From Chryseobacterium sp. Leaf201 (GTDB lineage Bacteria; Bacteroidota; Bacteroidia; Flavobacteriales; Weeksellaceae), in NCBI RefSeq assembly GCF_001421435.1, contig NZ_LMKA01000052.1:1-64000 (forward strand): 64,000 bases of DNA. Reading direction: 5' to 3'. The position numbers were made by a program, and so were the translations under genes. Every line of letters begins with the position of its first letter. Position 1 is the stretch's first letter. The notes below the pieces were generated by a model. The model made no database searches, was not told the DNA's origin, and was given only the letters and a program-made list of their open reading frames with translations. Shown one piece after another: positions 22,173 through 45,123 of the stretch.

Positions 22173-22174
22173 AC

Positions 22175-22247: not shown

Positions 22248-22252
22248 TAATT

Positions 22253-22324: not shown

Positions 22325-22375
22325 ACAATTTTATTAAGTAAAAAGTAAAAAGAAATTGAATAGGTTTCAAAAACT

Positions 22376-22448
22376 GCGGGAATGGCGGAACTGGCAAACG
22401 CACCTGATTTAGGATCAGGACATTAAGGGTTCGAATCCCTTTTCCCGT
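22376..22448 (+). tRNA. tRNA-Leu(TAG) lacking the long variable arm
   Basis: The acceptor GCGGGAA / TTCCCGT, a Leu-type D-arm (GGCGGAACTGG), anticodon stem CCTGA/TCAGG with loop TTTAGGA (TAG) and T-arm AAGGG-TTCGAAT-CCCTT are clear. The variable region is only about five bases, whereas Leu tRNAs normally have a long arm. CCA is not encoded. Confidence 0.75.
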
Positions 22449-22611
22449 ACAGAATATGAATAATGAGCAATGTGTAATAATCAAAAGTCACAACTCATAA
22501 CTCATCACCCATAACTCAAAAATGGGTGGTTAGAAAAAGCCGAAAATAAAAATCAGGGATCAATGATCATTTATGAATTATAAAAAGTATAAAACTTAAC
22601 ATGTAGAAAAA

Positions 22612-23097
22612 ATGGAAACGCAACAACAAAAATGGCAGAATATGAACGGAAAAATTTTCCGCAACCCTATCACACAGCTGGTAGAAGAAGCCATCCTCCG
22701 AGAACAGGCCAACGGGCACCGGCTGAAAGTGTGTGTGGGATCAGATTCCCATGTATACGGTGATGCTATTAATTATGCTACGGCAGTCGTAATCATCCGC
22801 GAGGGAAAAGGAGCGTTTACCTTTATCAGAAAAGAAAGAGAATTCCAGCGTATCAGTATCAAGGAACGGATGCTGAATGAAGTCAACAAATCTGTAGAGA
22901 TCGCTTATGCCATCTGTGCTGTCCTGGAAACGTATGATGTGGAAATGGAGGTACACGCAGACATTAACACCGACCCTGATTTTAAATCCAATGTCGCTTT
23001 GAAAGACGCCATGGGCTACATTCTGGGAATGGGATATGTATTTAAAGCAAAACCTTATGCATTCGCAAGTTCCAATTGTGCTGATATGATGGTGTGA
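22612..23097 (+). CDS. RNase H-like YkuK-family (DUF458) protein
   Basis: The 161-residue protein matches my memory of the YkuK/DUF458 family, which has an RNase H-like fold. Acidic positions occur in VCVGSDSHVYGD, VHADINTDP and the C-terminal region. It could be a ribonuclease or a nucleic acid binder. It opens the RNA-processing island right after the tRNA field. Confidence 0.75.
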   Translation: METQQQKWQNMNGKIFRNPITQLVEEAILREQANGHRLKVCVGSDSHVYGDAINYATAVVIIREGKGAFTFIRKEREFQRISIKERMLNEVNKSVEIAYAICAVLETYDVEMEVHADINTDPDFKSNVALKDAMGYILGMGYVFKAKPYAFASSNCADMMV

Positions 23098-23218
23098 CGG
23101 AGCGGGAAGCGGGAGGACAGGAGGCGGGAAGTTTTTAACCCATGATATAACCTTCGTGCATCCGCCTCTTTGGCTTTCGTCCAAAAAAAGATAAAAAGAA
23201 CCTTAAAAACTGATAACC

Positions 23219-23994
23219 ATGTATTTTTTAATCCAGGCCAATGTATACTCAGATCCAGATCATTATAAAATTTTTGATGCTCTGGAAGAATTGAATATTG
23301 ATTACGAGGTCATTAATATCCCTCCAAATGCGGAAAGAATTGATTGCGAAACAGACAGGAAAGATGTTTTCGTGTATGGATCGGTAACCATTGCAAGACT
23401 GGCAAAACAAAATACAGAATGGGTTCCCGGTTCTTTTTACGGAGGCAGTCATTTGTATGAGGTGTATTCCAAATATTATGGTGAAAACCTTTTGAATCAT
23501 AATGTTTCCGTTCACAAAATCCCAGAAGCTTTAAACTGGAAAAAAGATGAACTCAAATTCATCAAACCCTACAGTGAAGCGAAGATTTTTACAGGAAAGG
23601 TTTTTAACCGAACAGAATGGGAAGATTTCGTTTTCGAATCACTGGAAAATCAATCCAACAGGATTACAGAAGATGCTCTGGTACAGGTTCTGAAGTAAAG
23701 CAAACCGTGAAAGAAGCCAGGCTCTGGATTGTCGGCGGAAAAATTATAGACGCAGGATATTATAAATTTAATGACCATGCCCCTTTCGAGGAAAAAGTTT
23801 CAGAAGAAGGATTGAATTTCGCCAGTGAAATGATCCGGCTTTTCAATCTTGAAGAAGCTTTTGTCATGGATATCTGTTTAACCGGTGAAGGCTGGAAGAT
23901 TGTTGAAGTCAACTGCATCAACAGCTCCGGGTTTTATCCCAATAGCAACGTGAAAAGTATCATCAGAGCATTGAATATTTACTTTTCAGATTAA
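23219..23994 (+). pseudogene. ATP-grasp protein split by a frameshift
   Basis: The first frame (23219-23698) encodes an N-terminal part and stops at TAA 23696. The -1 frame carries on from about 23686 to 23994 with SEVKQTVKEARLWIVGGK and the ATP-grasp-type metal segment IVEVNCINSSGF. Joined, they form one protein of about 258 residues like the R2K/DUF4343 clade. I see no slippery heptamer at the join, so a one-base indel or a sequencing error is likelier than programmed shifting. The paralogue at 24,007 is intact. Confidence 0.7.
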
Positions 23995-24006
23995 AAGAAT
24001 AACAAC

Positions 24007-24816
24007 ATGAAATATAACAGGATAGCCGTTATCGGCTTGCACGAAGAAGAATACCGGTATATACGGGAACATTTTGAAGGATTGATCATCTGGCATCAGT
24101 CGGTTCCGAAAATAAAAGTTGTAGACGGAATATTATATGTCGAAAAAGCCCAGGGCGTAGGGATGCTGCCGGTAGATAAAGTAATTTATCACGGGATTTT
24201 TGAAAATGATCTCGATTTTATTTCAGGGCTGGCTTTATGGAACGGCCCGTGCTTCCCGAATGCATACGGAATGATGGAATGCAGGCTTAAAATACCCTGC
24301 CTGGTGAAAGCCATGAAGTTTTCTGAATTCAGTTCCCCGAGAGGATTTATTTCAGAAGGTGCCTATGTAACAACAGATACGGAACGGGTTGCCAAATGGG
24401 GGAACTGGCATTGCGGGGAAAATAAGCATAAGTTTTCCGGGAGCTGGGAGAGCACAGAGGATGCGGTACTGGAACCCTATTTTGAAGGTGAAGCCGTGAG
24501 GATCTTGCATATTGGCGGAAAATCCTGGCAGATAAAACTGGAAGGAGATACCTGGTTAAAATCCATTCATCCTGCACAGGTACGGTTCATGGACATTGAC
24601 GAAGGTCTTCTGAGAGATACGCTGAACCTGAAAGACCGGATCGGGATGGATCTCATAGCCAACGACTATATTGTCTGCGAAGACGGAACCAGGCATTTAT
24701 TGGAAATAAACCATATCCCGAACATCACGAGGTTTGAAGAAATAAGGCTCCACTTTTTAGATACCGTTGTCAGCTGGATCCATGAGGATGAAGATAATGA
24801 TGAAGACGGACTTTAA
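24007..24816 (+). CDS. ATP-grasp domain protein
   Basis: The 269-residue protein has an ATP-grasp-like C-terminal half with EPYFEGEAVRILHIGG and the metal-binding HLLEINHIPN near residue 237. ATP-grasp enzymes join a carboxylate to an amine or thiol with ATP; members of the R2K group are found near RNA-repair genes. The substrate is unknown. It starts 12 bases after the split paralogue. Confidence 0.75.
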   Translation: MKYNRIAVIGLHEEEYRYIREHFEGLIIWHQSVPKIKVVDGILYVEKAQGVGMLPVDKVIYHGIFENDLDFISGLALWNGPCFPNAYGMMECRLKIPCLVKAMKFSEFSSPRGFISEGAYVTTDTERVAKWGNWHCGENKHKFSGSWESTEDAVLEPYFEGEAVRILHIGGKSWQIKLEGDTWLKSIHPAQVRFMDIDEGLLRDTLNLKDRIGMDLIANDYIVCEDGTRHLLEINHIPNITRFEEIRLHFLDTVVSWIHEDEDNDEDGL

Positions 24817-24891
24817 AAGTTCCGGTTCTTTTCCGTGAAGGATTAAAACCCATGAAACAATTACTGTATCATATTTTAAAAAATTAAAGCA

Positions 24892-25275
24892 ATGGAACGT
24901 ACAAAAAGATTATTGTTTCTGGACGATATAAGATACCCGCTTGATGCATATCATTATACAGAACAGGATATGTTCCTCAGGGAAGACTGGCATGTTGTCC
25001 GGAATTATGCGCAGTTTGTCAGCAGGATCCTGGAAAAAGGACTTCCGGAAATGATTTCTTTTGATCATGACCTTGCTGATGAGCATTATTTAGAACAGGA
25101 TTCTCAGGAATATGTAGAAAAAACAGGCTACGATTGTGCAAAATGGCTGATAGAATATTGTATGGATCATGATGCGGAACTGCCTGAATTCTACTGCCAT
25201 TCCATGAATCCGGTAGGAAAAGAAAATATCGAAAGCCTGTTAAATAACTTTAAAAAACGTAATGGAGATTTTTAG
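24892..25275 (+). CDS. Cyclic-phosphate-processing receiver-like protein (cREC)
   Basis: The 127-residue receiver-like domain has LFLDDIRYP at the N-terminus, SFDHDLAD in the middle and a conserved-looking CHSMNPVG near the end, the pattern I associate with the cREC family. That family was proposed to act on 2',3'-cyclic phosphate ends in RNA-repair systems. Its end overlaps the DinB gene by 14 bases. Acting before the RNA ligase downstream would make sense, but that is inference. Confidence 0.75.
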   Translation: MERTKRLLFLDDIRYPLDAYHYTEQDMFLREDWHVVRNYAQFVSRILEKGLPEMISFDHDLADEHYLEQDSQEYVEKTGYDCAKWLIEYCMDHDAELPEFYCHSMNPVGKENIESLLNNFKKRNGDF

Positions 25276-25834
25276 ATTAATTCAGCATGTGAAAATGCAT
25301 TTGAAATTCAGTTTTGATGAGCTCGACCGGTGGTTTGAAAAAGATAAAACAATCTTAAATTATAAACCTTCAAACGGAGGCTGGACGGTTCAGCAGATTT
25401 TAGAACACATCAGTCTGACGAACTTTTATCTGTTGATTCTTATTGAAAAAGGTTCAAAAAAAGCAATGCGGAATTATCTTAATCTTGATTTGAATCTTGA
25501 AATAAAGAATTACAGTTTCAATAAAGATAAATTTGATAAAGTAGGTGAGTATGGTGCTTTTGAGTGGGTGAGACCCGAGCATATGGAGCCAAAAGGAGAG
25601 TTGAATTTAAATCAAATCAGAAGTTTGATTTCTCAGCAGTATCATCAGTGCTTAAATTATTTGGAATTGATGGAAAATGGTGAAGGTCTTCTCTGTAAAA
25701 CAACAATGACCGTAAATGAGCTGGGGAAAATCAATGTATATGAATACATTTATTTTCTTTCACTTCATGCCTGGAGACACCTTGCTCAGATGAAAAATAA
25801 TGAGTTAGAAACGATTAAAAATTTAAAAAAATGA
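25262..25834 (+). CDS. DinB-like four-helix protein
   Basis: The 190-residue protein matches the DinB/YfiT-type fold: a histidine in ILEHIS near residue 48 and the pair in LHAWRHLAQ near 170 would bind a metal. DinB-type proteins are diverse and often act as thiol-dependent transferases. It overlaps cREC by 14 bases and the RNA ligase by 4, so it belongs to one operon with them. Confidence 0.78.
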   Translation: MEIFRLIQHVKMHLKFSFDELDRWFEKDKTILNYKPSNGGWTVQQILEHISLTNFYLLILIEKGSKKAMRNYLNLDLNLEIKNYSFNKDKFDKVGEYGAFEWVRPEHMEPKGELNLNQIRSLISQQYHQCLNYLELMENGEGLLCKTTMTVNELGKINVYEYIYFLSLHAWRHLAQMKNNELETIKNLKK

Positions 25835-26844
25835 TTTTCAAAACATATAACACAATAGAAAATGCTTACCAGGCCCGCGTGATTGATCAGATCAGGATGC
25901 AGGGCTTCGGGGATGAGGTTTTCATCGTGCAGGAAAAGGTTCACGGTGCCAATCTCTCTTTCTTTACCGACGGAAAGGAGATTAAGATGGCCAAAAGAAC
26001 CGCTTTCATCGAAAAGGATGAGAAGTTTTACAATGCACATGATATTTTAGAACGTTACAGAAAAAATGTAATTCATATCTTCGAGAAAGTGAAAGCCGTT
26101 TATCCGGATATGGAAACGGTGGTGATCTACGGCGAACTGTTCGGCGGAGGATACAAACATAAAGAAGTAGCGCCTGTAAAAGATGCCATCAAAGTGCAGA
26201 AAGGCATAGAGTATGCGCCGCACAACGAATTTTACGGATTTGATATCAAACTGAACGGCACCACGTATCTGGATACGGATTTAGCCAATCAGATTTTTGA
26301 GGAAACCGGATTCTTCTATGCGAAGATCCTGTTTCAGGGGACTTTGGAAGAGGCTTTGAAGTTTCCGAATGCTTTTGGTTCTAAAATTCCGGCATGGCTG
26401 GGCCTGCCTGAAATTGAAGATAATATGTGTGAAGGGACCATTATTAAAACTTTGAAAACCAGGTATTTTGGAAACGGCGCCAGGGTCATTCTGAAAAATA
26501 AGAACGAGAAATGGACCGAAAAATCAAAAGTAGTCAGAAAAGAAAGGCCCGCCAGGAAAGATGTTCATTTCAGCGGAAAAGCCCGGGAGATTTGGGAAGA
26601 AATCCGGAGCTATGTAACTGTAAACAGGCTGAATAACGTCATGAGCAAAACCGGTGAATTCGAACCTGAAATGATGGGGAAAATAATCGGTCTTTTTTCA
26701 CAGGATGTTCTGGAGGATTTTGAGAAAGATTTCCCGGAAGCTTTCGCAGCCATAGAAAAAGATGAGCAGAAGAGAATCAATAAAAAATTGAATTCTTTGG
26801 TCATTGATCTTGTAAAACAGGAGCTGATGACGCTTAAAATTTAG
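25831..26844 (+). CDS. RNA ligase, T4 Rnl2 type
   Basis: The enzyme seals 3'-OH/5'-phosphate nicks in RNA using ATP. The 337 residues align well with T4 Rnl2 along the whole length. The adenylated lysine lies in QEKVHGANLSF (about residue 36), motif III in YGELFGGG, motif IV in EGTIIKT and motif V in VILKNKN. The C-terminal domain has YVTVNRLNNVMSKTGE, close to the phage protein. It is the central enzyme of the island. Confidence 0.92.
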   Translation: MIFKTYNTIENAYQARVIDQIRMQGFGDEVFIVQEKVHGANLSFFTDGKEIKMAKRTAFIEKDEKFYNAHDILERYRKNVIHIFEKVKAVYPDMETVVIYGELFGGGYKHKEVAPVKDAIKVQKGIEYAPHNEFYGFDIKLNGTTYLDTDLANQIFEETGFFYAKILFQGTLEEALKFPNAFGSKIPAWLGLPEIEDNMCEGTIIKTLKTRYFGNGARVILKNKNEKWTEKSKVVRKERPARKDVHFSGKAREIWEEIRSYVTVNRLNNVMSKTGEFEPEMMGKIIGLFSQDVLEDFEKDFPEAFAAIEKDEQKRINKKLNSLVIDLVKQELMTLKI

Positions 26845-30725: not shown

Positions 30726-30761
30726 TGCGCAAAAACACTGCGCAATACCGTCATTACTTTG
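30726..30761 (+). promoter_or_regulatory. Promoter with double TGCGCA box before Ro60
   Basis: Two TGCGCA boxes start 13 bases apart (30726 and 30739) and a TTACTTTG -7-like box follows 9 bases after the second. The same spacing recurs before the RNA repeats at 33,096 and 33,344, so one regulator probably binds all three. Confidence 0.65.
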
Positions 30762-30822: not shown

Positions 30823-32340
30823 ATGAAATTTAATTTTTTAAGAAAAGAAAATAAAGTAGTGACCAACTACGAAGGCGCGAAAGCATTCACGATGACCCCT
30901 GCAGAAGAACTGTACAGTGCTGTTGTTACAACAGGATTATCAAACACTTCATATGAAAAGGGAACTGACAGGCTGACAAGAATCCAGTCTCTGATCCAGA
31001 AAAACGACCCGGAATTCGTGGCGAAGCTGGCCGTCTATGCAAGGAAAGAAATGTACCTGCGCTCCATTCCATTGGTTCTGACGACCGAACTGGCAAAACA
31101 GGTTTCAGGTACTGACTTGGTAAGCAGAACCGTTGACGGAGTGATCCAAAGAGCAGACGAAATCACGGAATTGCTGGCGTATTACCAATTGGCCAACGAA
31201 AGAACAGAAACGAAAAAGCTGAATAAACTTTCAAAACAGATCCAGAAAGGTCTGGTGAAGTCTTTCAATAAATTTGATGAATACCAGTTCGCAAAATACA
31301 ACAGAAAAGCTGAAGTTACGTTGAAAGACGCATTGTTCCTGGTTCACCCGAAAGCAAAGGATGAAAACCAACAGGCAATCTTCAACAAGATCGTCAACGA
31401 TGCATTGGAAACTCCATACACCTGGGAAGTTGAACTTTCTGTGCTGGGTCAGACAAAATTTGCGGATGATGCAGAAAGAAAATCAGCGTTTAAAAACAAA
31501 TGGGAAGAATTGATTTTCAGCAACAAACTGGGCTATATGGCAACCTTGCGGAATCTCAGAAATATTCTGGAAGCTGGTGTTTCTTCAGATGCAATGTACA
31601 AAGTGTGCAACTATTTGTCGGATGAAAAAGCCGTAAGAAACTCAAAGCAGCTGCCGTTCAGGTTTTTGGCGGCGTATCGCGAATTGAAAGCCATCGATTC
31701 ACCTTACCTGTCCTCGATCCTGGAAGCACTGGAAAATGCGGTAATGGTGAGTGCGAAAAATATCAAAGGTTTTGGTTTCGATGCTTCGGTGGTTATTGCG
31801 GCAGACGTTTCCGGTTCAATGCAGCAGCCGGTTTCCCCGAAATCTAAGATTCTGTTGTATGATATCGGCCTGTTGATGTCGATGATGCTGCAGTCGCAGT
31901 GCAGAAATGTGGTTTCCGGTATGTTCGGCGACCGTTGGAAAAGAGTGCCGATGCCTAAAAACGGAATACTGAGAAATGTGGACGCGTTTTACAAAAGAGA
32001 AGGTGAAGTAGGTTATTCCACAAACGGTTATCTGGTGATTGAAGATTTGATTGCCAGAAAAGAAAGCGTGGATAAAGTAATGCTGTTCACCGATACACAG
32101 CTTTGGAACAGCAACGGCGGCGGAAACTCTTTTGAAAATTCATGGAACCGGTACAAAAGTATCAGTCCCAATGCAAAATTGTATATTTTTGACCTGGCGG
32201 GTTACGGAAAACAGCCGCTGGATGTCAGAAAAAATGATGTATACCTTATCGCAGGCTGGTCCGACAAGACTTTCGATGTACTGAATGCTTTGGAAGACCG
32301 GAAATCTGCGGTAGAAATAATTAAAAAAGTAGTGCTGTAA
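30823..32340 (+). CDS. Ro60 (TROVE-domain) RNA-binding protein
   Basis: Ro60 is a ring-shaped protein that binds misfolded RNA ends and Y RNAs. The 505-residue protein has a TROVE helical-repeat domain at about residues 15-325 and a vWA-like domain at about 330-500, with the intact metal motif ADVSGSMQ near residue 328. Its length is typical of bacterial Ro60 (Rsr). The gene has a special promoter shared with the RNA array downstream, which supplies candidate Y RNAs. Confidence 0.92.
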   Translation: MKFNFLRKENKVVTNYEGAKAFTMTPAEELYSAVVTTGLSNTSYEKGTDRLTRIQSLIQKNDPEFVAKLAVYARKEMYLRSIPLVLTTELAKQVSGTDLVSRTVDGVIQRADEITELLAYYQLANERTETKKLNKLSKQIQKGLVKSFNKFDEYQFAKYNRKAEVTLKDALFLVHPKAKDENQQAIFNKIVNDALETPYTWEVELSVLGQTKFADDAERKSAFKNKWEELIFSNKLGYMATLRNLRNILEAGVSSDAMYKVCNYLSDEKAVRNSKQLPFRFLAAYRELKAIDSPYLSSILEALENAVMVSAKNIKGFGFDASVVIAADVSGSMQQPVSPKSKILLYDIGLLMSMMLQSQCRNVVSGMFGDRWKRVPMPKNGILRNVDAFYKREGEVGYSTNGYLVIEDLIARKESVDKVMLFTDTQLWNSNGGGNSFENSWNRYKSISPNAKLYIFDLAGYGKQPLDVRKNDVYLIAGWSDKTFDVLNALEDRKSAVEIIKKVVL

Positions 32341-32385: not shown

Positions 32386-32475
32386 AGGAGCTTAATCCCG
32401 CTTTCCGCTGTATCTTTTTCACCAGCGCTTTTTTCAAGCCATTTCAGAAAAAGGATGCCGCTTCAATCGGGGCTA
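32386..32475. repeat. Dispersed flavobacterial palindromic repeat
   Basis: The segment runs from AGGAGCTTAATCCCGCTTT through a TTTTT...AAAAA arm to GGATGCCGCTTCAATCGGGG. I recognise this layout (ggagct...cccgct...ggatnccgct...tcggggcta) as a repeat found between many Flavobacteriia genes. It follows a leader-like ACTGATAACCAT without a gene start. Confidence 0.65.
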
Positions 32476-32495
32476 AAAATAAAAACCGCATAAAA

Positions 32496-33095: not shown

Positions 33096-33131
33096 TGCGT
33101 AAAAAGAATGCGTACTACCGCAATAACTTTG
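33096..33131 (+). promoter_or_regulatory. Promoter P1 of the Y-like RNA array
   Basis: TGCGTA boxes at 33096 and 33109 (13 bases apart) are followed after 9 bases by TAACTTTG, an exact TAnnTTTG. The layout is identical to the Ro60 promoter. Confidence 0.7.
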
Positions 33132-33161
33132 CAGCAACAATAACCATAAGAACTTAAAAAT

Positions 33162-33233
33162 AACCGATGCCGTAAGAAAAGAAATCCTTCGACTTCCAAT
33201 TGACACAGAGTCTTTTCGCAAGATTGCTCGGTT
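33162..33233 (+). ncRNA. Y-like RNA a
   Basis: The lower stem AACCGA / TCGGTT encloses TGCCGTAA on the 5' side and GCAAGATTGC on the 3' side. The upper stem is GAAAAGA / TCTTTTC, and CTTCG follows the upper 5' strand. C in TGCC pairs with G in TTGC. The apical part is not tRNA-like. The transcript would start near 33,137. Confidence 0.7.
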
Positions 33234-33238
33234 AAACT

Positions 33239-33321
33239 AACCAATGTCGTCCATAAGAGTTCCATCGTCAAACTTCCAATTTGAATACTATTTAAAAACT
33301 CTTATACCCTGTTACTTGGTT
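33239..33321 (+). ncRNA. Y-like RNA b
   Basis: The lower stem AACCAA / TTGGTT, 5' motif TGTCGTCC, upper stem ATAAGAG / CTCTTAT, CATCG and 3' strand ACCCTGTTAC follow the family plan, with T in TGTC matched by A in TTAC. It lies 5 bases after RNA a. The apical loop is AT-rich and not tRNA-like. Confidence 0.7.
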
Positions 33322-33343
33322 TTAATTTTAAATAAATTTTACC

Positions 33344-33379
33344 TGCGTAAAAAAAATGCGTACTACCGCAATAACTTTG
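33344..33379 (+). promoter_or_regulatory. Promoter P2 of the Y-like RNA array
   Basis: TGCGTA boxes at 33344 and 33357 and TAACTTTG at 33372 repeat P1 exactly in spacing. P1 with RNAs a/b and P2 with RNAs c/d form a tandem duplication of about 250 bases. Confidence 0.7.
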
Positions 33380-33416
33380 CAGCAACAAATAACAATAACC
33401 ATAAGAACTTAAAAAT

Positions 33417-33488
33417 AACCGATGCCGTAAGAAAAGAAATCCTTCGACTTCCAATTGACACAGAGTCTTTTCGCAAGATTGCTCGGTT
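33417..33488 (+). ncRNA. Y-like RNA c
   Basis: It duplicates RNA a in sequence and fold: AACCGA / TCGGTT, TGCCGTAA, GAAAAGA / TCTTTTC and GCAAGATTGC. A short TCGGTTT duplication follows it. Confidence 0.7.
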
Positions 33489-33500
33489 TCGGTTTAAACT

Positions 33501-33581
33501 AACCAATGTCGTCCATAAGAGTTCCATCGATCAAACTTATAACTTGAACAATATCAAAACGCTTATAATTATTACTTGGTT
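33501..33581 (+). ncRNA. Y-like RNA d
   Basis: It duplicates RNA b: lower stem AACCAA / TTGGTT, TGTCGTCC, CATCG, and 3' strand AATTATTAC. The upper stem has one mismatch and the loop has diverged, but the paired ends are unchanged. Confidence 0.65.
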
Positions 33582-33596
33582 TTAAAAGAAATTTCA

Positions 33597-33630
33597 ACAG
33601 CATAAAAAGAATGCGTACTGACGCAATTAC
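33597..33630 (+). promoter_or_regulatory. Decayed promoter copy P3
   Basis: AGCATA and TGCGTA boxes keep the 13-base spacing, but the -7 box reads AATTACAA without TTTG. It may be inactive, or the seven RNAs downstream may be read through from P1 and P2. Confidence 0.5.
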
Positions 33631-33706
33631 AAAAAAAACAATAACAATGAATCATTATAAAAAATGTCTGAAAGAAACACTGTATTGAGGTTAATACTCA
33701 ATACAT

Positions 33707-34000
33707 ATGAAAAAATTTAAGTCACTAAGACAAGCTTTCGGAATCGATAAATACGGATTAATTGATTTCCCGCAGAAAATTTCAAATATCCGGATTTCCA
33801 GAATTTTATATGGAAATGAAATGGGCTGCTCTTATTGTTTCCCACATGGCTATGAAACAATTAATTCAAAAGAAATTAAGTTTCAGAGAAATTGGAAAAA
33901 ATACAGAAAAATCCAATGGAAACTGAAAAGTAAGTGTCGTAAAGCAGAGTTTCTTCGTGGGGACAGCAATACAGGTTCAAATCCTGTTCTCGAAAATTAG
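33707..34000 (+). CDS. Possible small basic protein
   Basis: The first 75 or so residues (KSLRQAFGIDKYGLIDFPQK ... CSYCFPHGYETINSKE) look like a real, Lys/Arg-rich protein, but the last 25 codons run into Y-like RNA 1. An 8-bp inverted repeat (GTATTGAG / CTCAATAC) lies just before the ATG and could hide the ribosome site. I know no family. It may be a real Y RNA partner or a chance frame. Confidence 0.4.
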   Translation: MKKFKSLRQAFGIDKYGLIDFPQKISNIRISRILYGNEMGCSYCFPHGYETINSKEIKFQRNWKKYRKIQWKLKSKCRKAEFLRGDSNTGSNPVLEN

Positions 34001-34056
34001 GGATAGTATAATGGTATCACTCTGTCGGTAAGTCTCTGTTTGATTTTTTACCTTAC
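33930..34056 (+). ncRNA. Y-like RNA 1 with permuted tRNA module
   Basis: The outer helix is GTAAG / CTTAC with TGTCGTAA, upper stem AGCAGAG / CTCTGTT and 3' end TTAC. Inside, GACAG (33962) pairs with CTGTC (34022) as an anticodon stem. Between them come T-arm ACAGG-TTCAAAT-CCTGT, an acceptor stem TCTCGAA / TTAGGGA closed by two bases, and a D-arm with AATGGT. The tRNA order is thus 3' half before 5' half, with no free acceptor end. Confidence 0.75.
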
Positions 34057-34065
34057 GTTAAAAAT

Positions 34066-34136
34066 AATCGATGCCGTAAGAAAGAGTTCCTTCGGCTTTC
34101 ATTGAACTAAAAACTCTTTTTAAAAGTTGCTCGGTT
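34066..34136 (+). ncRNA. Y-like RNA 2
   Basis: The lower stem AATCGA / TCGGTT, TGCCGTAA, upper stem AAAGAGTT / AACTCTTT, CTTCG and 3' strand TAAAAGTTGC follow the plan. It is related to RNAs a and c and has no tRNA module. Confidence 0.7.
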
Positions 34137-34147
34137 TAAATTATTTT

Positions 34148-34267
34148 GCAGGTGCCGTAGATAAAAGTTACTTCGTTATTTTACAAAGGTTCGAATCCTT
34201 TCGCCGAAAGGTGTGGTCGAGTGGCTAGACAGTTTTTAAGTAAAACTTTTATCAATATTTGCCTTGT
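34148..34267 (+). ncRNA. Y-like RNA 3 with permuted tRNA module
   Basis: The lower stem is GCAGG / CTTGT, with TGCCGTAG, upper stem ATAAAAGTT / AACTTTTAT (9 bp) and CAATATTTGC. The module has T-arm AAAGG-TTCGAAT-CCTTT, a short acceptor-like stem CGCC / GGTG closed by a GAAA tetraloop, and a D-arm GTC-GAGTGGCTA-GAC of Ser/Leu type. The GNRA cap shows that no free 3' end is intended. Confidence 0.75.
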
Positions 34268-34296
34268 ATTTTTAGAATAAAATTATAAAATATAAA

Positions 34297-34438
34297 AATC
34301 AAGTGTCGTTTTAGAATCATACTTCGAATATTAATCATTGGGTCACAGGTTCAAATCCTGTCTTCTCTGTTGTAAACGGGAAGTAGCTCAGCGGGTAGAG
34401 CAAATGCACTGAAAGATTCTTAATTTTTTACCTTGATT
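34297..34438 (+). ncRNA. Y-like RNA 4 with permuted tRNA module
   Basis: The lower stem AATCAAG / CTTGATT (7 bp), TGTCGTTT, upper stem AGAATC / GATTCT and TTAC end are present. The module has an anticodon-stem remnant CATT / AATG, T-arm ACAGG-TTCAAAT-CCTGT, acceptor CTTCTC / GGGAAG with a 10-base loop, and D-arm GCTC-AGCGGGTA-GAGC. Confidence 0.75.
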
Positions 34439-34443
34439 ATAAT

Positions 34444-34552
34444 AAAGAGTGTCGTAGAGAAAACTTACTTCGGTACATCTTATGATATTGGTTCAACTCC
34501 AAAAATAAATCTGAAAATGGTTTATATAAGTTTTTTCATTATTTACCTCTTT
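34444..34552 (+). ncRNA. Y-like RNA 5 with a D-arm-less tRNA module
   Basis: The lower stem AAAGAG / CTCTTT, TGTCGTAG, a 10-bp upper stem AGAAAACTTA / TAAGTTTTTT and CATTATTTAC are present. The T-arm is TTGG-TTCAACT-CCAA and the capped acceptor is ATAAATC / GGTTTAT. The D-arm is missing: the acceptor strand runs within one base into the upper stem. Confidence 0.7.
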
Positions 34553-34563
34553 TAATTTTAATA

Positions 34564-34716
34564 AAAACAAGTGCCGTAGAACAGCGTTACTTCGCTATGA
34601 CCGACGGGGTCGCGGGTTCGAGCCCCGCCTCTTCCACAAACAAAACACAGATGGATAAGGGAGAGTAGCTCAGCTGGTTAGAGCACGACTGCGCTTTTTG
34701 ACTGTTGCTTTGTTTT
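34564..34716 (+). ncRNA. Y-like RNA 6 with permuted tRNA module
   Basis: The lower stem AAAACAAG / TTTGTTTT, TGCCGTAG, upper stem AACAGCG / CGCTTTT (one mismatch) and TGACTGTTGC are present. The module has T-arm GCGGG-TTCGAGC-CCCGC, a full 7-bp acceptor CTCTTCC / GGGAGAG closed by 23 bases, and a canonical D-arm GCTC-AGCTGGTTA-GAGC. This is the clearest permuted tRNA of the set. Confidence 0.78.
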
Positions 34717-34721
34717 ATACA

Positions 34722-34854
34722 TAAAGTGCCGTAAGGGAAAGATACATCGTCTCTTTGGGGAGGAATAATGAAGCCGGTAATTCCGGCAAGATTATCCGGT
34801 TCGACTCCGGCTTGACGTGCCCCGCATTTTTTCTTTTCCTGCCTTTTGCCTTTA
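34722..34854 (+). ncRNA. Y-like RNA 7 with a different apical fold
   Basis: The lower stem TAAAG / CTTTA, TGCCGTAA, upper stem GGGAAAGA / TCTTTTCC and TGCCTTTTGC are present, with CATCG after the upper stem. Inside are GGGG / CCCC and AAGCCGG / CCGGCTT helices and a T-arm-like CCGG-TTCGACT-CCGG, but no full tRNA order. It ends the array. Confidence 0.65.
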
Positions 34855-34861
34855 ATACATA

Positions 34862-34896
34862 AAATCCGGAAATGATGCGTATCGTTTCCGGATTTA
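34862..34896. terminator. Terminator of the RNA array
   Basis: AAATCCGGAAA pairs perfectly with TTTCCGGATTT around 12 bases. It also serves the converging HTH gene. Confidence 0.75.
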
Positions 34897-34916
34897 TTTA
34901 TGTTGCTGTGCTCTGT

Positions 34917-35258
34917 TTACTGAGCCTGTATTTTTTCAAATTCTTTTTCAAAAGTCTTTTTCCATTTGGCAATGGTCGTTCTGCTGATCCTGTATTTTTT
35001 AGACATAAAGCTGGTGGACAGGTTGTGTTTCTGCTGATACTGCAGGAGCTTCAGCATGGTCTTCTTGTCATAGGTTTTAAGCTGCTGATTATTTTTCAGG
35101 CTTTCTTTGGATGATTTGAAAATCAGATCGTTGAGTTTTAAAATGTCCTCAGAAGTCTTTAAATTATTCAAAAGCCTCAGGACTTTAGGATCTTTCAGCT
35201 TTTCAGGATCTTTCTCCTTAAGCATATCCTGATAAATTTTTTTATAATTGGGGCGCAT
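34917..35258 (-). CDS. Helix-turn-helix protein, second of a pair
   Basis: The 113-residue protein ends in a transposase-like HTH (FMSKKYRISRTTIAKWKK). I recognise this pair type from Chryseobacterium genomes, where it is present in several copies. It may be a remnant of a mobile element or a regulator. It lies 12 bases after its partner gene. Confidence 0.75.
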   Translation of the reverse strand: MRPNYKKIYQDMLKEKDPEKLKDPKVLRLLNNLKTSEDILKLNDLIFKSSKESLKNNQQLKTYDKKTMLKLLQYQQKHNLSTSFMSKKYRISRTTIAKWKKTFEKEFEKIQAQ

Positions 35259-35270
35259 GATATTCAGGAT

Positions 35271-35687
35271 TTAGGTTTTCTGGAGCCAGCGATGCAGGGT
35301 ACTTTTGGGGATGGAATATTCATTGATAATTTCAACATGCGTCATCTCGCCGGACCTTATCTTACCAATGATAAATTCCTTAATTTCCTGGGTGTAAATA
35401 TTTTTCCGGAAATAGGGGATCTTTTCAGAATTCAGGCTCTTGCTTTTATCAACAGCAGAAGGCGGTGAATATAAAATCAGGTGGGAGCTGTAGATCCTGA
35501 AAAAATCATACTGCAGCAGCTTCGAGAATTTTAAAAGTACTTCTGTATCCACGGAAGCACCGGCATAGATTTTTTCAAGGCTTTCTTCATCCTTTTTCAG
35601 GAAATTACAGACTCTTTCAGTACCGATTTCCAGTTCTTCCACTCTCTCTCTGATGAGTTTTCCTATATGTATTTCTTTGTATAGCAT
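35271..35687 (-). CDS. Helix-turn-helix protein, first of a pair
   Basis: The 138-residue protein starts MLYKEIHIGKLIRERVEELE with an XRE-like N-terminal helical part and ends with a second HTH (YSIPKSTLHRWLQKT). It is the usual partner of the downstream HTH gene. No catalytic transposase domain is present. Confidence 0.75.
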   Translation of the reverse strand: MLYKEIHIGKLIRERVEELEIGTERVCNFLKKDEESLEKIYAGASVDTEVLLKFSKLLQYDFFRIYSSHLILYSPPSAVDKSKSLNSEKIPYFRKNIYTQEIKEFIIGKIRSGEMTHVEIINEYSIPKSTLHRWLQKT

Positions 35688-40847: not shown

Positions 40848-41525
40848 TTGAAAACAGATATAGACATCCGCAGTCATTCGCATTTTTCCTTCGATCTGTG
40901 GCTTACCCTCATCAAATCCCATCCTGAATTCAAAGCAAAAAGAGTGGAGCTGTTTTCCTCGTTTTTCGAGGTTGACCAACCGATGGATAAAGTAGCGAAA
41001 GCTGTAAAATATTATGATGATCTCTGCAATACCATCAATGAAGTAATCGGCGGGAATGTGGATACTTTTGAAATTTATCTGCTGATCCTGGGTTCATTAA
41101 ATGTGGACCTTAAACAACTGGACCAGGAGAAATTAAACCGGTTCTACCAAAAAAGCGAAGACCTGTTTCTGGAATATAAGCCGGTGGTGATTTTCGAAAA
41201 TTTACATGAATTTTTTGAAGAAATAAGGAGTCAGGGGAAAACCATCAGTATTCTGAGCAATACAGGCTTTATCAAAGGCAGAACGATGAGGAAATTCCTG
41301 ATGAATGAAAATCTTGATCAGTATATTGATTTCCATGTATATTCCGATGAAACGAACTGCTCAAAGCCCAGCCCTCAGATATTCCGGGAAGTGAAATCCC
41401 TGATTAAAAACCAGGAGGTGGATCTGCACCGCATCCTGCACATCGGAGACAACCCGGTTGCAGATTACAAGGGCGCAAAAGATTTCGGCTTTAATGCACA
41501 CCTGCTCAAACACCCAATATTATAA
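40848..41525 (+). CDS. HAD-family hydrolase of the Ter operon
   Basis: The 225-residue protein has HAD motifs FDLWLTL (I, second Asp replaced by Trp-Leu context), SNTGF (II), a Lys in SKPSP (III) and HIGDNPVADYKGA (IV). In motif I the nucleophile Asp is present but the usual DxD second Asp is Trp. The start is a TTG. HAD proteins are a regular part of TerD-type operons. The end lies 4 bases before the next start. Confidence 0.8.
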   Translation: MKTDIDIRSHSHFSFDLWLTLIKSHPEFKAKRVELFSSFFEVDQPMDKVAKAVKYYDDLCNTINEVIGGNVDTFEIYLLILGSLNVDLKQLDQEKLNRFYQKSEDLFLEYKPVVIFENLHEFFEEIRSQGKTISILSNTGFIKGRTMRKFLMNENLDQYIDFHVYSDETNCSKPSPQIFREVKSLIKNQEVDLHRILHIGDNPVADYKGAKDFGFNAHLLKHPIL

Positions 41526-41529
41526 TAAT

Positions 41530-42354
41530 ATGAACAGAAGATACAGCTTACATCCCATTCATTCGGCCGATGAGTTCACTTTTTCGCCGGAAGAATACAG
41601 CTATTTTAAATATGGCGACAAGGCGTACGCGGAGAAATTTGCCAAAGAACTATTCAATGGCTTCGTTGCCGAACACAGCAGCCTTTTGGATACGGAAAAA
41701 GAAATCGTAGTGTTGCCAAGCCCTTACATGGCCATTCCTACCGCTTCCAATTTTCTATGTTTTTACTTTAAGAAATATCTTGATTTTTACCTGTTTAAAA
41801 AAGGAAGGAAATCAAGCATCTTATCAAAAATCAACAGAAACCATACCTATACCACAGATTATGGAAATCTGAGTTTTGAAGACCGGAAAAATTTAATTTC
41901 CAATGACACCTATTACCTGGACAGGGATTTTCTTAAGGGAAAACTTTGTATTTTTATAGACGATATTAAAATAACGGGAAGCCATGAGTATACCGTAAAT
42001 AAAATCCTGGAGCAGTATAACGTAGAAGGGGACTTCCTTTTTATGTACTATGCTGAACTGATGAATTTTGATATCGATCCGAAGATTGAAAACTTTTTTA
42101 ATTACTATGCTGTGAACAGTGTGGAACATATTGCAGAAGTGATGGTGAAACCCAGTTTCCAGTTCAATACAAGGATTGTAAAATATATTTTAGGCCTGGA
42201 ATCAGGTAAATTTGACTATCTTTCGTCTAAAGTAAAAAAAGAACAGATGGATCACCTGCTTGAGCTGGCGATCAGCAACAATTATCATTTAATAAAAGAT
42301 TACGAAAACAATATAAACACTTTAACACAAACTGAATTATATTATGGCTATTAA
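41530..42354 (+). CDS. Phosphoribosyltransferase-like protein of the Ter operon
   Basis: The 274-residue protein from the ATG at 41530 has a PRTase-type motif LCIFIDDIKITGSHE near residue 138. TerD-linked operons encode such enzymes, proposed to make a nucleoside-like metabolite. It overlaps the first TerD gene by 11 bases. Confidence 0.78.
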   Translation: MNRRYSLHPIHSADEFTFSPEEYSYFKYGDKAYAEKFAKELFNGFVAEHSSLLDTEKEIVVLPSPYMAIPTASNFLCFYFKKYLDFYLFKKGRKSSILSKINRNHTYTTDYGNLSFEDRKNLISNDTYYLDRDFLKGKLCIFIDDIKITGSHEYTVNKILEQYNVEGDFLFMYYAELMNFDIDPKIENFFNYYAVNSVEHIAEVMVKPSFQFNTRIVKYILGLESGKFDYLSSKVKKEQMDHLLELAISNNYHLIKDYENNINTLTQTELYYGY

Positions 42355-42898
42355 CTTACAGAAAGGACAGAGAGAAAATATAAACGCTCCTAAATTCACC
42401 GTTGGATTAGGATGGGATATTAACAACACCTCAACAGGAACAGGCTTCGATTTGGATGCTTCCCTGTTTTTACTGGACGAAAATAAAAAACTGGTTTCAG
42501 ATAACCATTTTATTTTTTACAACAACCTGGAGTCTCCGGACAAAGCGGTTATTCACACAGGGGACAACCTTACAGGAGACGGATCAGGAGATGATGAGCA
42601 GATCAATATTGATTTAACCAAAATTGATGATGCCGTAAAGGAAATCACGATCGTGGTAACCATTCACGAGGCAGATGCCAGAAGACAGAATTTCGGGCAG
42701 GTAAGAAACTCTTTCATCAGGATTTTCAATACCGAAACCAATGAAGAGATCTTAAAATATGAACTGGATGAAGATTTCTCCATTGAAACCGCTGTGGAGT
42801 TCGGAAGAATTTACAACAGAAACGGAGAATGGAAATTCGAGGCCGTAGGAAGCGGACAGCGAGAAGGTCTTGACAAATTTGTATCAATGTATCAATAA
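42344..42898 (+). CDS. terD: TerD-family protein, copy 1
   Basis: The 184-residue protein has the TerD calcium-binding pattern: GLGWDINN, DLDASLFLLDEN and HTGDNLTGDGSGDDEQI. TerD proteins belong to stress and tellurite-resistance modules. It starts MAINLQKGQR, like the second copy at 45,124. Confidence 0.9.
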   Translation: MAINLQKGQRENINAPKFTVGLGWDINNTSTGTGFDLDASLFLLDENKKLVSDNHFIFYNNLESPDKAVIHTGDNLTGDGSGDDEQINIDLTKIDDAVKEITIVVTIHEADARRQNFGQVRNSFIRIFNTETNEEILKYELDEDFSIETAVEFGRIYNRNGEWKFEAVGSGQREGLDKFVSMYQ

Positions 42899-42903
42899 TC
42901 ACT

Positions 42904-44073
42904 ATGGATAATCAACCTAACCAACCTATAGACCCGCTTCAGTCCATTGAACCGCTTAAAACCTTTGAGCCTGCACCACAGCAGCAGCCTGTGCCGGCAG
43001 CTAATCAGGGGTCTGCACCGGTAGTGGTAGACCGGGACGGAAACGTCAACCTGTCTCAGTTACAGGTAGAAGAGCGCAGGAAATATGAAGTGCTTGCAGA
43101 TTCCATTGATGAAACCAACCCGGGATCAATCGTAAACTTCGGAGCTGATCTTCAGCGGACACTTTCCAACCAGAGTGACAGTTTCCTGGGGAATGTAAGA
43201 CGTTCCAATTCCGGAGAAGTGGGAGAGCTGATCAATAATTTATTGGTCGAGCTTAATTACGTGGATGTTGAAGAACTCAACCAGAATAAGTTCAAAAGCT
43301 TTCTAAGCAAGCTGCCGTTCATGAAAACGCTGATGACGCAGGTGGAGAATTTATTCGCGAAATATGACAAGATCATCAACAATATCGATCAGATTGCCTA
43401 CAAAGTAAATGCGGGAATCATTACTTCGACAAAAGATAATGCCGTACTGCAGACGATTTTTGAAAGCAATGTGAACGCGATCAAGCAGATTGAAGAACTG
43501 GTGATTGCCGGAAACCTAAGGATGGAAAAAGCAGCGGCCGAGCTTGCAACAATGGAGGCTGCTCCGCAGAACTATCAGGATTATGAAATTGCAGACAAAA
43601 GGGATTTCATCGCGAGATTGGACCGCAGGCTGGCAGACCTTAAAGTGGTACGCCTTATCATGATGCAGTCGCTTCCGCAGATCAGGCTCGTACAGAACAA
43701 CAACGTTTCCATTGCCGAAAAAGCGCAGACGATCTTAACGACCACGCTGCCGCTTTGGAAAAACCAGCTTTCACTGGCCGTGGCCATGTACAGGCAGCAG
43801 CAGAGCATTGAGATCCAGCAGAAGGTTTCTGCCACCACAGAGGAAATCCTGAAGAAAAATGCAGAGCGTCTGGGCCAGAACTCAATCAATGTAGCCAGAG
43901 CCAATGAACAGACCGTAGTTTCTGTGGAAACCTTGAGAGAGACCACTTCAAAACTGATCAGTACCCTGAATGAAGTAAAACAGATCCAGAAGCAGGGAGC
44001 GGAAGGAAGAAGAAAGCTGGATCAGGACCTGATGACGCTGGAGCACGAACTGAAAGCAAACGTAAGAGGATAA
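42904..44073 (+). CDS. telA: TelA-like toxic anion resistance protein
   Basis: The 389-residue protein is mostly alpha-helical and Gln/Glu-rich after a Pro/Gln-rich N-terminus, with the family's typical core (FLSKLPFMKTLMTQVENLF, then KNQLSLAVAMYRQQQ). It is cytoplasmic. It lies 5 bases after terD. Confidence 0.87.
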   Translation: MDNQPNQPIDPLQSIEPLKTFEPAPQQQPVPAANQGSAPVVVDRDGNVNLSQLQVEERRKYEVLADSIDETNPGSIVNFGADLQRTLSNQSDSFLGNVRRSNSGEVGELINNLLVELNYVDVEELNQNKFKSFLSKLPFMKTLMTQVENLFAKYDKIINNIDQIAYKVNAGIITSTKDNAVLQTIFESNVNAIKQIEELVIAGNLRMEKAAAELATMEAAPQNYQDYEIADKRDFIARLDRRLADLKVVRLIMMQSLPQIRLVQNNNVSIAEKAQTILTTTLPLWKNQLSLAVAMYRQQQSIEIQQKVSATTEEILKKNAERLGQNSINVARANEQTVVSVETLRETTSKLISTLNEVKQIQKQGAEGRRKLDQDLMTLEHELKANVRG

Positions 44074-44088
44074 TAATACCCTGAAAAG

Positions 44089-45036
44089 GTGGATGATGAA
44101 GCTGTAAACATACTGTCCCAAAGTAAAAGAAGATTAACAAGACTTAAGCTTCTTGCCAATTTTTTTGAAAATGCCGATATAATCTCGATCTATATTAAAA
44201 CCGATGTTATACACCATCTTTTTCAGGAAAATAAGGCACTTGATTACAGTAAGCTTGAGCTGTTCCACCTGCAGTATACCGACAGCCTCATCGAACTTCT
44301 GACGAAGATTAAAAGGCAGAAGGAAAATGATATGCTGGCGGTAATCAATGAAATTGATGTCAACAACAAATACATTTCAGGCTTTGAAGAAAAGCAGGCT
44401 GATGGTTTTGAAACAGACCGGAGGATGTACAGCGGTATATTTTCCAACCAGTTAAAAAACCTGTATAAAGACCTTACGGAAGATAAATTCCGGCTGAACT
44501 GGGAAAACGTGCTGTATTTCTATAAAAAGTATGCAGCCGAATTTTACAGGACCGGGGTGGATGAAGAACTGCTGAAGTCCGGTTCATTTCCGGCATATCA
44601 GTACCATGATTATCAGATTGAAAGGAAATTACTGGGAAGGCTTAATATCCAGAACTTTAAGGTCCGTTTTGTCTGTGGGTACAATATCTCGGGGAATGAG
44701 TATGAACTGTTTAAGCTGTTTCAGACCGATGACTGTTTTATATTTGATATTGAAGGCAGGAAGATGTACCTGATTGATCCCAAAAAACTGGAGAAACTGG
44801 ATACAATGCCCAATGAATCGAACCGGCAGACCCTCGTTCAGCAGCTGCGGAACAAAAACCAGAAGCTGGAGGAAACCATCGGGGAAAGAAAAAGAATGCT
44901 GCCGGACCAGGTGATCACCGTTTTGCAGGATTATCTGAGGAACCTGGAAAATGTAGACATCATGAGCAGGATATTCGACATCAATGAAGAAACCAATATC
45001 CTTCGTGCGATGCTGAATTTAAACCTGAATAATTAA
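44089..45036 (+). CDS. Hypothetical protein of the Ter operon
   Basis: The 315-residue, helical, charged protein starts with GTG 15 bases after telA. I do not know a named family, but the position within the operon is clear. A coiled-coil-like stretch lies near residues 250-290. Confidence 0.65.
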   Translation: MDDEAVNILSQSKRRLTRLKLLANFFENADIISIYIKTDVIHHLFQENKALDYSKLELFHLQYTDSLIELLTKIKRQKENDMLAVINEIDVNNKYISGFEEKQADGFETDRRMYSGIFSNQLKNLYKDLTEDKFRLNWENVLYFYKKYAAEFYRTGVDEELLKSGSFPAYQYHDYQIERKLLGRLNIQNFKVRFVCGYNISGNEYELFKLFQTDDCFIFDIEGRKMYLIDPKKLEKLDTMPNESNRQTLVQQLRNKNQKLEETIGERKRMLPDQVITVLQDYLRNLENVDIMSRIFDINEETNILRAMLNLNLNN

Positions 45037-45123
45037 CAATGAACCCAAATCGTGAAACCGTAAGACATTAAATTTAAAGCTGACGAGCGGTTTTGCAGAA
45101 TAATAATACTAAACATAAAAATA

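What the first reader, a model, noticed from the sequence alone, without database searches (positions are those of the whole stretch)
33162..34854. Array of eleven Y-like RNAs with perfect covariation downstream of Ro60
Eleven elements (33162, 33239, 33417, 33501, 33930, 34066, 34148, 34297, 34444, 34564, 34722) share one plan: a lower stem; UGYCGU; 12-13 nt including one strand of an upper stem; CWUCG; an apical part; the other strand; and a 3' strand of 9-11 nt ending UURC. In all eleven, UGCC goes with UUGC (6 cases) and UGUC with UUAC (5 cases), a C-G to U-A covariation directly above a bulged U. Lower and upper stems also differ in sequence while staying paired. Bacterial Y RNAs bind Ro60 through a bulged helix of this kind, and most genomes have one or two, not eleven packed 5-30 nt apart.
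Basis: partly seen in the sequence, partly recalled or inferred. Interest (0 to 1): 0.96.

Follow-up and report, generated by a model that had tools for sequence, protein, structure and literature searches.

The report
Conserved operon of modular Y RNAs
Next to the gene for the RNA-quality-control protein Ro60, this Chryseobacterium-type genome carries eleven predicted small RNAs built on one stem design with different tips, several of which copy parts of tRNA; relatives keep much the same ordered set, one member of which copies a piece of ribosomal RNA.

Summary
Observation confirmed: a mechanical scan of the window, both strands, finds exactly these eleven elements. Arrays of this kind lie downstream of Ro60 in 36 of 36 fetched family loci and, by the same strict rule, in 77 of 80 named Chryseobacterium, Epilithonimonas and Flavobacterium loci. 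Chosen without regard to the Y-R pair, 417 of 424 distinct elements keep it. They form about a dozen orthologous classes in nearly fixed order; 11 of 11 classes tested refold to the same bulged stem. Five classes carry permuted tRNA-like tips, as in YrlA. One (16 of 80 loci, not this window) copies up to 33 nt of 23S rRNA helices 69-71. Array and Ro60 share a promoter/operator with only six sites in this genome; the rest front RtcB ligase, the RNA-repair enzyme RlaP and a gene followed by tRNAs. Best reading: Y-type RNAs of a Ro60 RNA-repair regulon, with interchangeable tips. Ro60 binding, expression and function are untested. Known kind, new variant. Canonical YrlA arrays exist in other bacteroidotes, so arrays as such are not unique.

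The parts
30726..30761 (+). shared promoter/operator TGCGCA-N7-TGCGCA-N9-TTACTTTG in front of Ro60
   Evidence: exact pattern; 1 of only 6 sites (up to 3 mismatches) in the 4.34-Mb genome; a looser form lies upstream of Ro60 in 35 of 37 loci and 67 of 80 named loci
30823..32340 (+). Ro60 / TROVE gene, 505 aa
   Evidence: Pfam TROVE 108 bits; nearest solved chains are TROVE-domain proteins 9l5y and 9kop
33096..33131 (+). promoter/operator before first elements A-B
33161..33234 (+). Y-like element, class A (short, no tRNA-like tip)
33238..33322 (+). Y-like element, class B (short)
33344..33379 (+). promoter/operator, duplicated copy
33416..33489 (+). Y-like element, duplicate of class A
33500..33582 (+). 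Y-like element, second class B copy
33581..33643 (+). degenerate third copy of the promoter/operator stretch
   Evidence: 75% identical third member of repeat D3; not matched by the pattern
33928..34058 (+). Y-like element, class C: permuted tRNA-like tip (T arm, acceptor-like hairpin, D arm of Gln type)
34065..34137 (+). Y-like element, class D (short; clusters with A)
34146..34269 (+). Y-like element, class E: permuted tRNA-like tip (T half 21/21 nt as own tRNA-Arg(tct), D arm Cys-like)
34297..34438 (+). Y-like element, class F: permuted tRNA-like tip (Met/Lys/Gly-like); sub-threshold YrlA match of 33.2 bits (cut-off 69)
34443..34553 (+). Y-like element, class G: T arm only
34565..34715 (+). 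Y-like element, class H: permuted tRNA-like tip (Ile/Gly/Met-like)
34720..34856 (+). Y-like element, class I: long hairpin plus T arm, not permuted
34862..34895 (+). intrinsic terminator at the end of the array
   Evidence: 15-pair stem and T tail; folding z -5.6 for 34855-34910

Best explanation
The eleven elements are Y-type RNAs. Each folds into a closed stem whose bulged helix (lower stem, bulged U, G-C and Y-R pairs) is the presumed Ro60-binding part; the tip is an interchangeable effector module. Short members have only a small tip; others carry permuted tRNA-like bodies of different tRNA types without an anticodon arm; relatives add one with a copy of 23S rRNA helices 69-71. They are made from a promoter/operator shared with Ro60, one RtcB, RlaP and a gene followed by tRNAs, so they belong to an RNA-damage or RNA-repair regulon; a WYL-domain regulator beside rtcB is the candidate switch. 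Most likely each RNA makes a differently specialised Ro60 particle: the stem is held by Ro60, while the tip gates the ring or brings in a partner that normally binds tRNA or 23S rRNA, so that one Ro60 serves several RNA classes. Shown in silico: conserved structure, classes, order, module similarity, shared promoter-like sequence. Inferred: Ro60 binding, processing of a common transcript, induction by damage, module function.
For: Specific scan; arrays in 36 of 36 fetched family loci and 77 of 80 named loci, 434 elements, with 2 elsewhere on the + strand and 5 on the - strand (the two sets share species). Y-R pair kept in 417 of 424 distinct elements chosen without it, with both C-G and U-A inside classes A/D, B, C, F, G, H, I and Q. 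Covariation: for alignments A2 and A3, 0 of 500 shuffles reach the observed cells paired, cells with double changes or covariation score, and values fall sharply when slid; RNAalifold gives the same lower stem, bulge and two pairs in 11 of 11 classes. Order over 80 named loci: A/D before F 86/86, C before F 45/45, F before H 67/68, K before H 15/15, H before I 49/49 pairs. Modules, eight elements sampled per class: best tRNA score above the highest shuffle in 7 of 8 C, 8 of 8 F, 8 of 8 H, 8 of 8 Q, 7 of 8 E; 8 of 8 K score 21-31 against the rRNA operon, highest shuffle 13. Regulon: 6 sites in the genome; RtcB, RlaP and WYL genes beside them; 340 sites in 60 congeners versus 1 for the reversed pattern; 24 of 30 fetched best sites have Ro60, its paralogue, RtcB or RlaP within 1.5 kb. 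Outside genomes with this Ro60 only two kept a hit of at least 60 bits, and in one of them the UGCCGU box is gone. By eye the stem words CCGA-UGCC/UUGC-UCGG are close to those of canonical YrlA-type elements, CCGA-AUGCC/UUG-UCGG (L226).
Against: No expression, binding or phenotype data. Folding energies of single elements are not exceptional. Rfam YrlA is matched at 33 bits against a cut-off of 69, and own tandem tRNA genes reach 34 bits with the same model, so that match proves nothing. The exact YrlA word GGCGAATGC is absent from the window. 122 of 554 5' boxes had no TTNC partner under the rule used, partly because class K is longer than its 190-nt limit; most get a variant 3' word, but that count preferred pairing. 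Short classes A and B, and J, resemble neither tRNA nor rRNA above shuffles. Sequences come from related species, so counts are not independent. 13 of 80 named loci lack the operator upstream of Ro60, including 10 of 10 Flavobacterium loci. Model R2 also gives 65.9 bits to a canonical YrlA-type element of another bacteroidote, so 60 bits is not proof of class H.
Confidence: 0.62

Rival explanations
1. The tips are decoys: induced when RNases or ribotoxins cut tRNA or 23S rRNA, they occupy the attacking enzyme with a body that lacks the cut site, while RtcB and RlaP repair what was cut. Ro60 only stabilises them.
For: Same operator as RtcB and RlaP; tips copy tRNA bodies without an anticodon arm and, in class K, 23S H69-H71; Salmonella authors name competitive inhibition of an anticodon nuclease by YrlA as a possibility and found no YrlA fragments (PMC7790460, passages).
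Against: No target enzyme identified; short classes and J mimic nothing detectable.
Confidence: 0.25
2. The array titrates or is modified by tRNA/rRNA modification enzymes (T-loop, D-loop, H69-H71 enzymes), acting as a sensor or sponge.
For: YrlA is reported as substrate of DusA and TruB (PMC8394870, passages); T loops and D arms are kept in C, F, H, E, Q.
Against: Does not explain short classes, nor the shared promoter with RNA repair genes.
Confidence: 0.08
3. Decaying tRNA-derived repeats or mobile hairpins with no function.
For: Tandem duplication of promoter-A-B in the window; tRNA-like pieces; a small gene next door with weak matches to helix-turn-helix and transposase models.
Against: Covariation, nearly fixed class order over dozens of species, permuted order in nearly all scored copies, co-occurrence with Ro60.
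Confidence: 0.03

Closest known systems
Bacterial Y RNA YrlA (Rfam RF02553; Salmonella rsr-yrlBA)
   Same: Beside Ro60; long stem closed by both ends; tip a permuted tRNA-like body in the order T arm, acceptor, D arm, as in the Rfam alignment and, for the arms, the review text. Stem words related by eye.
   Different: Below the Rfam cut-off (33 of 69 bits); TGYCGT...TTRC instead of CGAATGC...TTGTCG; up to 13 elements per locus and about a dozen classes over the group, including short, non-permuted and 23S-like tips.
YrlA-type arrays behind divergent TROVE genes in other bacteroidotes (genomes G647/L225 and G631/L226)
   Same: Several tRNA-like Y RNAs next to TROVE; L226 also has one short element without a T arm between two tRNA-like ones (by eye).
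   Different: Canonical stem words (5 GGCGAATGC in L225, 7 CGAATGC in L226); TROVE proteins only 22-25% identical; short-element model R1 does not match them, although R2 does at 32-66 bits.
RtcR-controlled rsr-yrlBA-rtcBA RNA repair operon of Salmonella
   Same: Ro60, Y RNAs and RtcB under one control.
   Different: Scattered units under a common operator-like site with a WYL-domain gene beside rtcB; no RtcR in this genome; RlaP joins the regulon.
Vertebrate Y RNAs (recalled)
   Same: Ro60 bound through a bulged helix.
   Different: No tRNA-like tips; few genes.

Membership tests
Bacterial Y RNA (broad sense) | encoded next to a Ro60/TROVE gene | tested here: met
Bacterial Y RNA (broad sense) | 5' and 3' ends paired in a long stem with a conserved bulged helix | tested here: met
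Bacterial Y RNA (broad sense) | bound and stabilised by Ro60 | not testable with these tools
   needs pull-down
YrlA (RF02553) | permuted tRNA-like effector domain | tested here: inconclusive
   met by classes C, E, F, H and Q; not by A, B, D, G, I, J, K
YrlA (RF02553) | score above Rfam gathering cut-off 69 | tested here: not met
   33.2 and 32.8 bits
YrlA (RF02553) | stem word GGCGAATGC seen in canonical elements of L225 and L227 | tested here: not met
   0 matches in the window; 5 in L225, 1 in L227
rtcBA-type RNA repair regulon | co-regulated RtcB | tested here: met
   shared operator-like site in front of one of the two RtcB genes; sequence only
rtcBA-type RNA repair regulon | RtcR sigma-54 activator | tested here: not met
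   no PF06956 match in own genome; E. coli control positive
tRNA genes | canonical tRNA found by ARAGORN or by Rfam above cut-off | tested here: not met
   none in 33150-34860; one sub-threshold Rfam tRNA match of 17.9 bits at 34297-34369

The most novel reading that the evidence does not exclude
One Ro60 protein is served by a heritable library of swappable RNA tips, kept in nearly fixed order and switched on with RNA repair enzymes, in which each tip impersonates a different damaged-target RNA (several tRNA types, 23S rRNA H69-H71), so that the cell can aim Ro60 at, or shield, each part of the translation machinery.
Probability: 0.35. Interest if true: 0.95.

Novelty: new variant of a known kind. 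Interest (0 to 1): 0.84.

Why it matters
What bacterial Y RNAs and Ro60 do is an open question; by 2020 their function had been studied only in Deinococcus (PMC7790460, passage), with few Y RNAs per species (recalled). Here is a natural series of about a dozen Y-type RNAs on one scaffold, with tips that can be compared one by one, in named, mostly isolated species, under a promoter-like site shared with RtcB and RlaP. A 23S-rRNA-mimicking Y-type RNA gives a concrete link to an earlier report of a Ro60 orthologue in 23S rRNA maturation (title seen in reference lists; paper not read). The covariation gives testable binding rules for Ro60.

Tried and rejected
Rfam as proof: YrlA matches are sub-threshold, and own tandem tRNA genes score the same, so they were not counted as evidence. 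Partial R2 matches (model positions 42-130), which in the own genome fall on neighbouring tRNA genes, were not counted; full-length hits of 43-60 bits were not examined, except one at 46.6 bits (L204: no element by the scan). Anticodon-arm idea for the short classes: 7-nt loops CUUCCAA, CUUUUAA and CUUUCAA look like Gly, Lys and Glu anticodon loops, but many elements lack such a hairpin and similarity to tRNA equals shuffles; kept only as a lead. Rest of class K against the next 338 nt of 23S: like shuffles. Folding z-scores: not informative. My first operator regex had the wrong spacing and found nothing; repeated correctly. PADLOC: no match for the eight proteins given except a generic DEDDh exonuclease model. 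Phages and plasmids hold Ro60 relatives only below 60% identity (94 and 76 records). No paper on such arrays appeared in the listings of ten searches of the open library; the main Y RNA papers (Chen 2014, Wang 2018, Sim and Wolin 2018, Sim 2020) and Burroughs and Aravind 2016 are not held, so a published description there cannot be excluded. On re-checking I found that one search had covered 26 of 30 fetched operator loci; the other four were added. The same check showed a second canonical array with a short member (L226), for which I lowered interest from 0.86 to 0.84.
Full report
What is there. The finding lies in a 64-kb piece of a 4.34-Mb genome whose Ro60 is up to 93-94% identical to that of named Chryseobacterium species; I take the host to be Chryseobacterium or very near it (inference). 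Ro60 is at 30823-32340 (+), Pfam TROVE. Behind it the + strand carries eleven elements. A scan that knows only the two sequence words, the matching Y-R pair and a lower stem finds exactly these eleven in 64 kb on both strands. The array ends in a strong terminator (34862-34895).

Anatomy. Each element: lower stem; bulged U; G-C; Y-R; internal loop; upper stem, with the box CWUCG on the 5' side; a tip (folds). The tips differ. Five of the eleven are short. Four (33928, 34146, 34297, 34565) carry, in this order, a T arm, an acceptor-like hairpin and a D arm: a circularly permuted tRNA body with no anticodon arm, the plan of YrlA. Their halves resemble different own tRNAs: Gln-type D arm at 33928; a T half identical over 21 nt to tRNA-Arg(tct) with a Cys-like D arm at 34146; Met/Lys/Gly-like at 34297; Ile/Gly-like at 34565 (against 48 distinct own tRNA sequences). 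34443 has a T arm only; 34720 has a long hairpin and a T arm, not permuted. The T-D order was checked over whole classes: the D-like segment lies 3' of the T arm in 35 of 36 C, 74 of 74 F, 66 of 68 H, 5 of 6 Q and 7 of 7 E elements in which the T arm was recognised (of 41, 75, 69, 11 and 10 distinct). Isotype labels are best matches only.

Relatives. In a sample of 197 genomes of the family, 43 encode a Ro60 relative. I fetched 36 loci (35 at 81-93% identity and one at 43-45%); 36 of 36 have at least one element downstream of Ro60 on its strand, 192 in all, 0-1 per locus on the other strand. Seven loci of a more divergent Ro60 (about 29%) gave no array by this rule. A separate collection gave 80 named loci, the best 80 of 201 (partly the same species): 77 have elements by the strict rule, 434 in all, with 2 elsewhere on the + strand and 5 on the - strand. 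Of the three without, one contig ends 201 bases after Ro60, one is 3.5 kb long, and L178 has five elements by the looser 5' box. By the 5' box the 70 other loci have a median of 7 (0-13) and the ten Flavobacterium loci 4-6. In 296 genomes of the order, 25 (3 of 90 genera) had this Ro60.

Covariation. To avoid choosing what I wanted to test, I took 5' boxes (TGNCGT plus the CWTC[GA] box) in 81 loci and accepted any TTNC within 190 nt with a lower stem: 554 boxes, 432 paired, 122 not (class K is too long for this rule). Among 424 distinct elements the pair is C-G 206, U-A 189, U-G 22, and not standard in 7. Both C-G and U-A occur inside classes A/D, B, C, F, G, H, I and Q, so the pair has switched repeatedly. 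For 32 short elements and 25 class-H elements, cells paired, cells with double changes and the covariation score exceed all 500 shuffles and collapse when the partner is slid by one to three columns; for the short set the number of further pair types does not stand out (74 of 500 shuffles reach it). RNAalifold on each of 11 classes recovers the same stem, with double changes in 20 of 41 pairs (H), 21 of 38 (C), 25 of 37 (I), 14 of 37 (F), 14 of 40 (Q), 12 of 27 (G), 9 of 21 (A/D), 4 of 17 (B), but only 9 of 70 (K), 3 of 33 (J) and 0 of 35 (E, 7 sequences). These alignments left out elements without a 3' end, with a lower stem under five pairs, or of outlying length (for instance E 7 of 10, K 13 of 16).

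Classes and order. Clustering gave about a dozen recurring classes plus small or single outliers (29 clusters at the cut-off used). The order along the 80 named loci is nearly fixed, A-B-C-(D)-F-J-Q-G-K-H-I: A/D before F in 86 of 86 pairs, C before F 45 of 45, F before H 67 of 68, G before H 52 of 54, K before H 15 of 15, H before I 49 of 49; weaker for A/D versus B (58 of 82) and C (29 of 55), which I ascribe to D, and for B versus C (31 of 41) and F versus G (58 of 65). The window carries A-B-A-B-C-D-E-F-G-H-I.

A ribosomal mimic. Class K (16 of 80 named loci; its core word is absent from the window) contains CGTAACTATAACGGTCCTAAGGTAGCGAAATTC in Chryseobacterium arachidis (L123), 33 of 33 nt identical to the window genome's own 23S rRNA, the region of helices 69-71 (alignment to the Rfam LSU model, itself below cut-off; helix names recalled). 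Eight sampled K elements score 21-31 against the rRNA operon, shuffles at most 13. The core word occurs in 15 of 80 loci, on the + strand only. The rest of K is not like 23S.

Link to Ro60. With a class-H model, 36 of 36 genomes with this Ro60 (81% identity or more) have a hit of at least 60 bits and 2 of 161 others do. I set 60 bits after seeing the table; the model comes from the same species group, and it also gives 65.9 bits to a canonical YrlA-type element outside the family. The two exceptions: one keeps two elements without Ro60 in the 14 kb fetched; the other keeps a decayed class-H copy that has lost the UGCCGU box.

Regulon. Ro60 and the array share a promoter/operator-like site, two TRCGYA words and a TAnnTTTG-like box (the latter recalled as the Bacteroidota -7 element). 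Loose forms lie upstream of Ro60 in 35 of 37 loci and downstream of it in 30 of 37, and upstream in 67 of 80 named loci, 0 of 10 in Flavobacterium. In 1.34 Mb there were 185 hits on the + strand (67 upstream, 95 downstream, 23 other) and 12 on the - strand, none in five shuffles. In the window's genome the strict pattern with up to three mismatches has six sites: Ro60, the array (two), a short-chain-dehydrogenase gene followed by tRNAs at 9909 (-), RtcB and RlaP. A WYL-domain gene stands beside that rtcB. In 60 congeners there are 340 sites (1-11 each, median 6) against 1 for the reversed pattern; of 30 fetched sites, one per genome, 24 have Ro60, a Ro60 paralogue, RtcB or RlaP within 1.5 kb and 6 do not. 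In L110-L113 WYL, RtcB, RlaP and the Ro60 paralogue sit together. RtcR is absent from the genome.

Interpretation. The structure, place and co-occurrence make these Y-type RNAs in the broad sense; they are not YrlA by the Rfam cut-off or the exact YrlA stem word, though the words are related by eye. Known YrlA ties Ro60 to PNPase, with a tRNA-like tip (PMC8394870, passages), and in Salmonella sits in an rtcBA operon activated by tRNA fragments (same review; PMC7790460, passages). I therefore read the array as a set of Ro60 adaptors in an RNA-repair regulon, each tip presenting another RNA surface. Decoy action is the strongest rival and the two are not exclusive. Nothing here shows binding, induction or function.

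How new. Permuted tRNA-like Y RNAs are known. Arrays are not unique: genome G647 has six T arms and five GGCGAATGC words behind a divergent TROVE gene, and G631 seven CGAATGC words, one of them in a short element. I saw no description of multi-class ordered arrays or of a 23S-mimicking member in the listings of ten searches of the open library, but the central Y RNA papers are not held there. Hence: new variant of a known kind.

Noticed in passing
window 8203-9944 (-): One of the six operator sites (9909) fronts a short-chain-dehydrogenase-like gene (8524-9888) followed by tRNA-Asp, -Gly, -Val, -Val genes; other, different genes for the same amino acids exist in this genome; possible tRNA replenishment in the same regulon.
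   Followed up: partly
window 20860-26844 (+): Array of further tRNAs (Arg, Glu, Cys, Tyr, Glu, Leu) with repeats between them, followed by an Rnl2-family RNA ligase (25831-26844), a cREC cyclic-phosphate-processing protein and, further on, a metallophosphoesterase and two RNase_T exonucleases; parts recur near Ro60 in relatives (Rnl2 in 18, the exonucleases in 35 and 38 of 80 loci).
   Followed up: partly
L109-L115: A divergent Ro60 paralogue (about 29% identical) has the same operator and, between operator and gene, Y-like RNAs that share the UUACUUCG box but have other stem words.
   Followed up: partly
L225 6737-7500 and L226 6900-10200: Arrays of canonical YrlA-type elements with different tRNA-like tips behind 22-25%-identical TROVE genes in other bacteroidotes; L226 has a short element without a T arm near 7329.
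   Followed up: partly
window 32390-32478 (-): Rfam Flavo-1 RNA (65.9 bits) immediately behind Ro60 on the opposite strand.
   Followed up: no
window 33161-33582, tips of short classes: Some hairpins have 7-nt loops (CUUCCAA; in relatives also CUUUUAA, CUUUCAA) that resemble anticodon loops of own tRNA-Gly(tcc), Lys(ttt) and Glu, but not above chance overall.
   Followed up: partly
window 34917-35687 (-): Two small genes, one with a weak helix-turn-helix match, converge on the array; relatives of them are found in 51 and 50 of 80 named loci, nearly always downstream on the opposite strand.
   Followed up: no
window 11583-19721 and 40848-45735: A MoxR-vWA-bpX ternary system and a TerD/TelA/phosphoribosyltransferase cluster share the neighbourhood.
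   Followed up: no
L129, L157, L139, L152, L162: Several contigs end close to Ro60: 0.2-1.7 kb downstream (L129, L157) or within 0.5 kb upstream (L139, L152, L157, L162); cause unknown, copy numbers may be underestimated.
   Followed up: no
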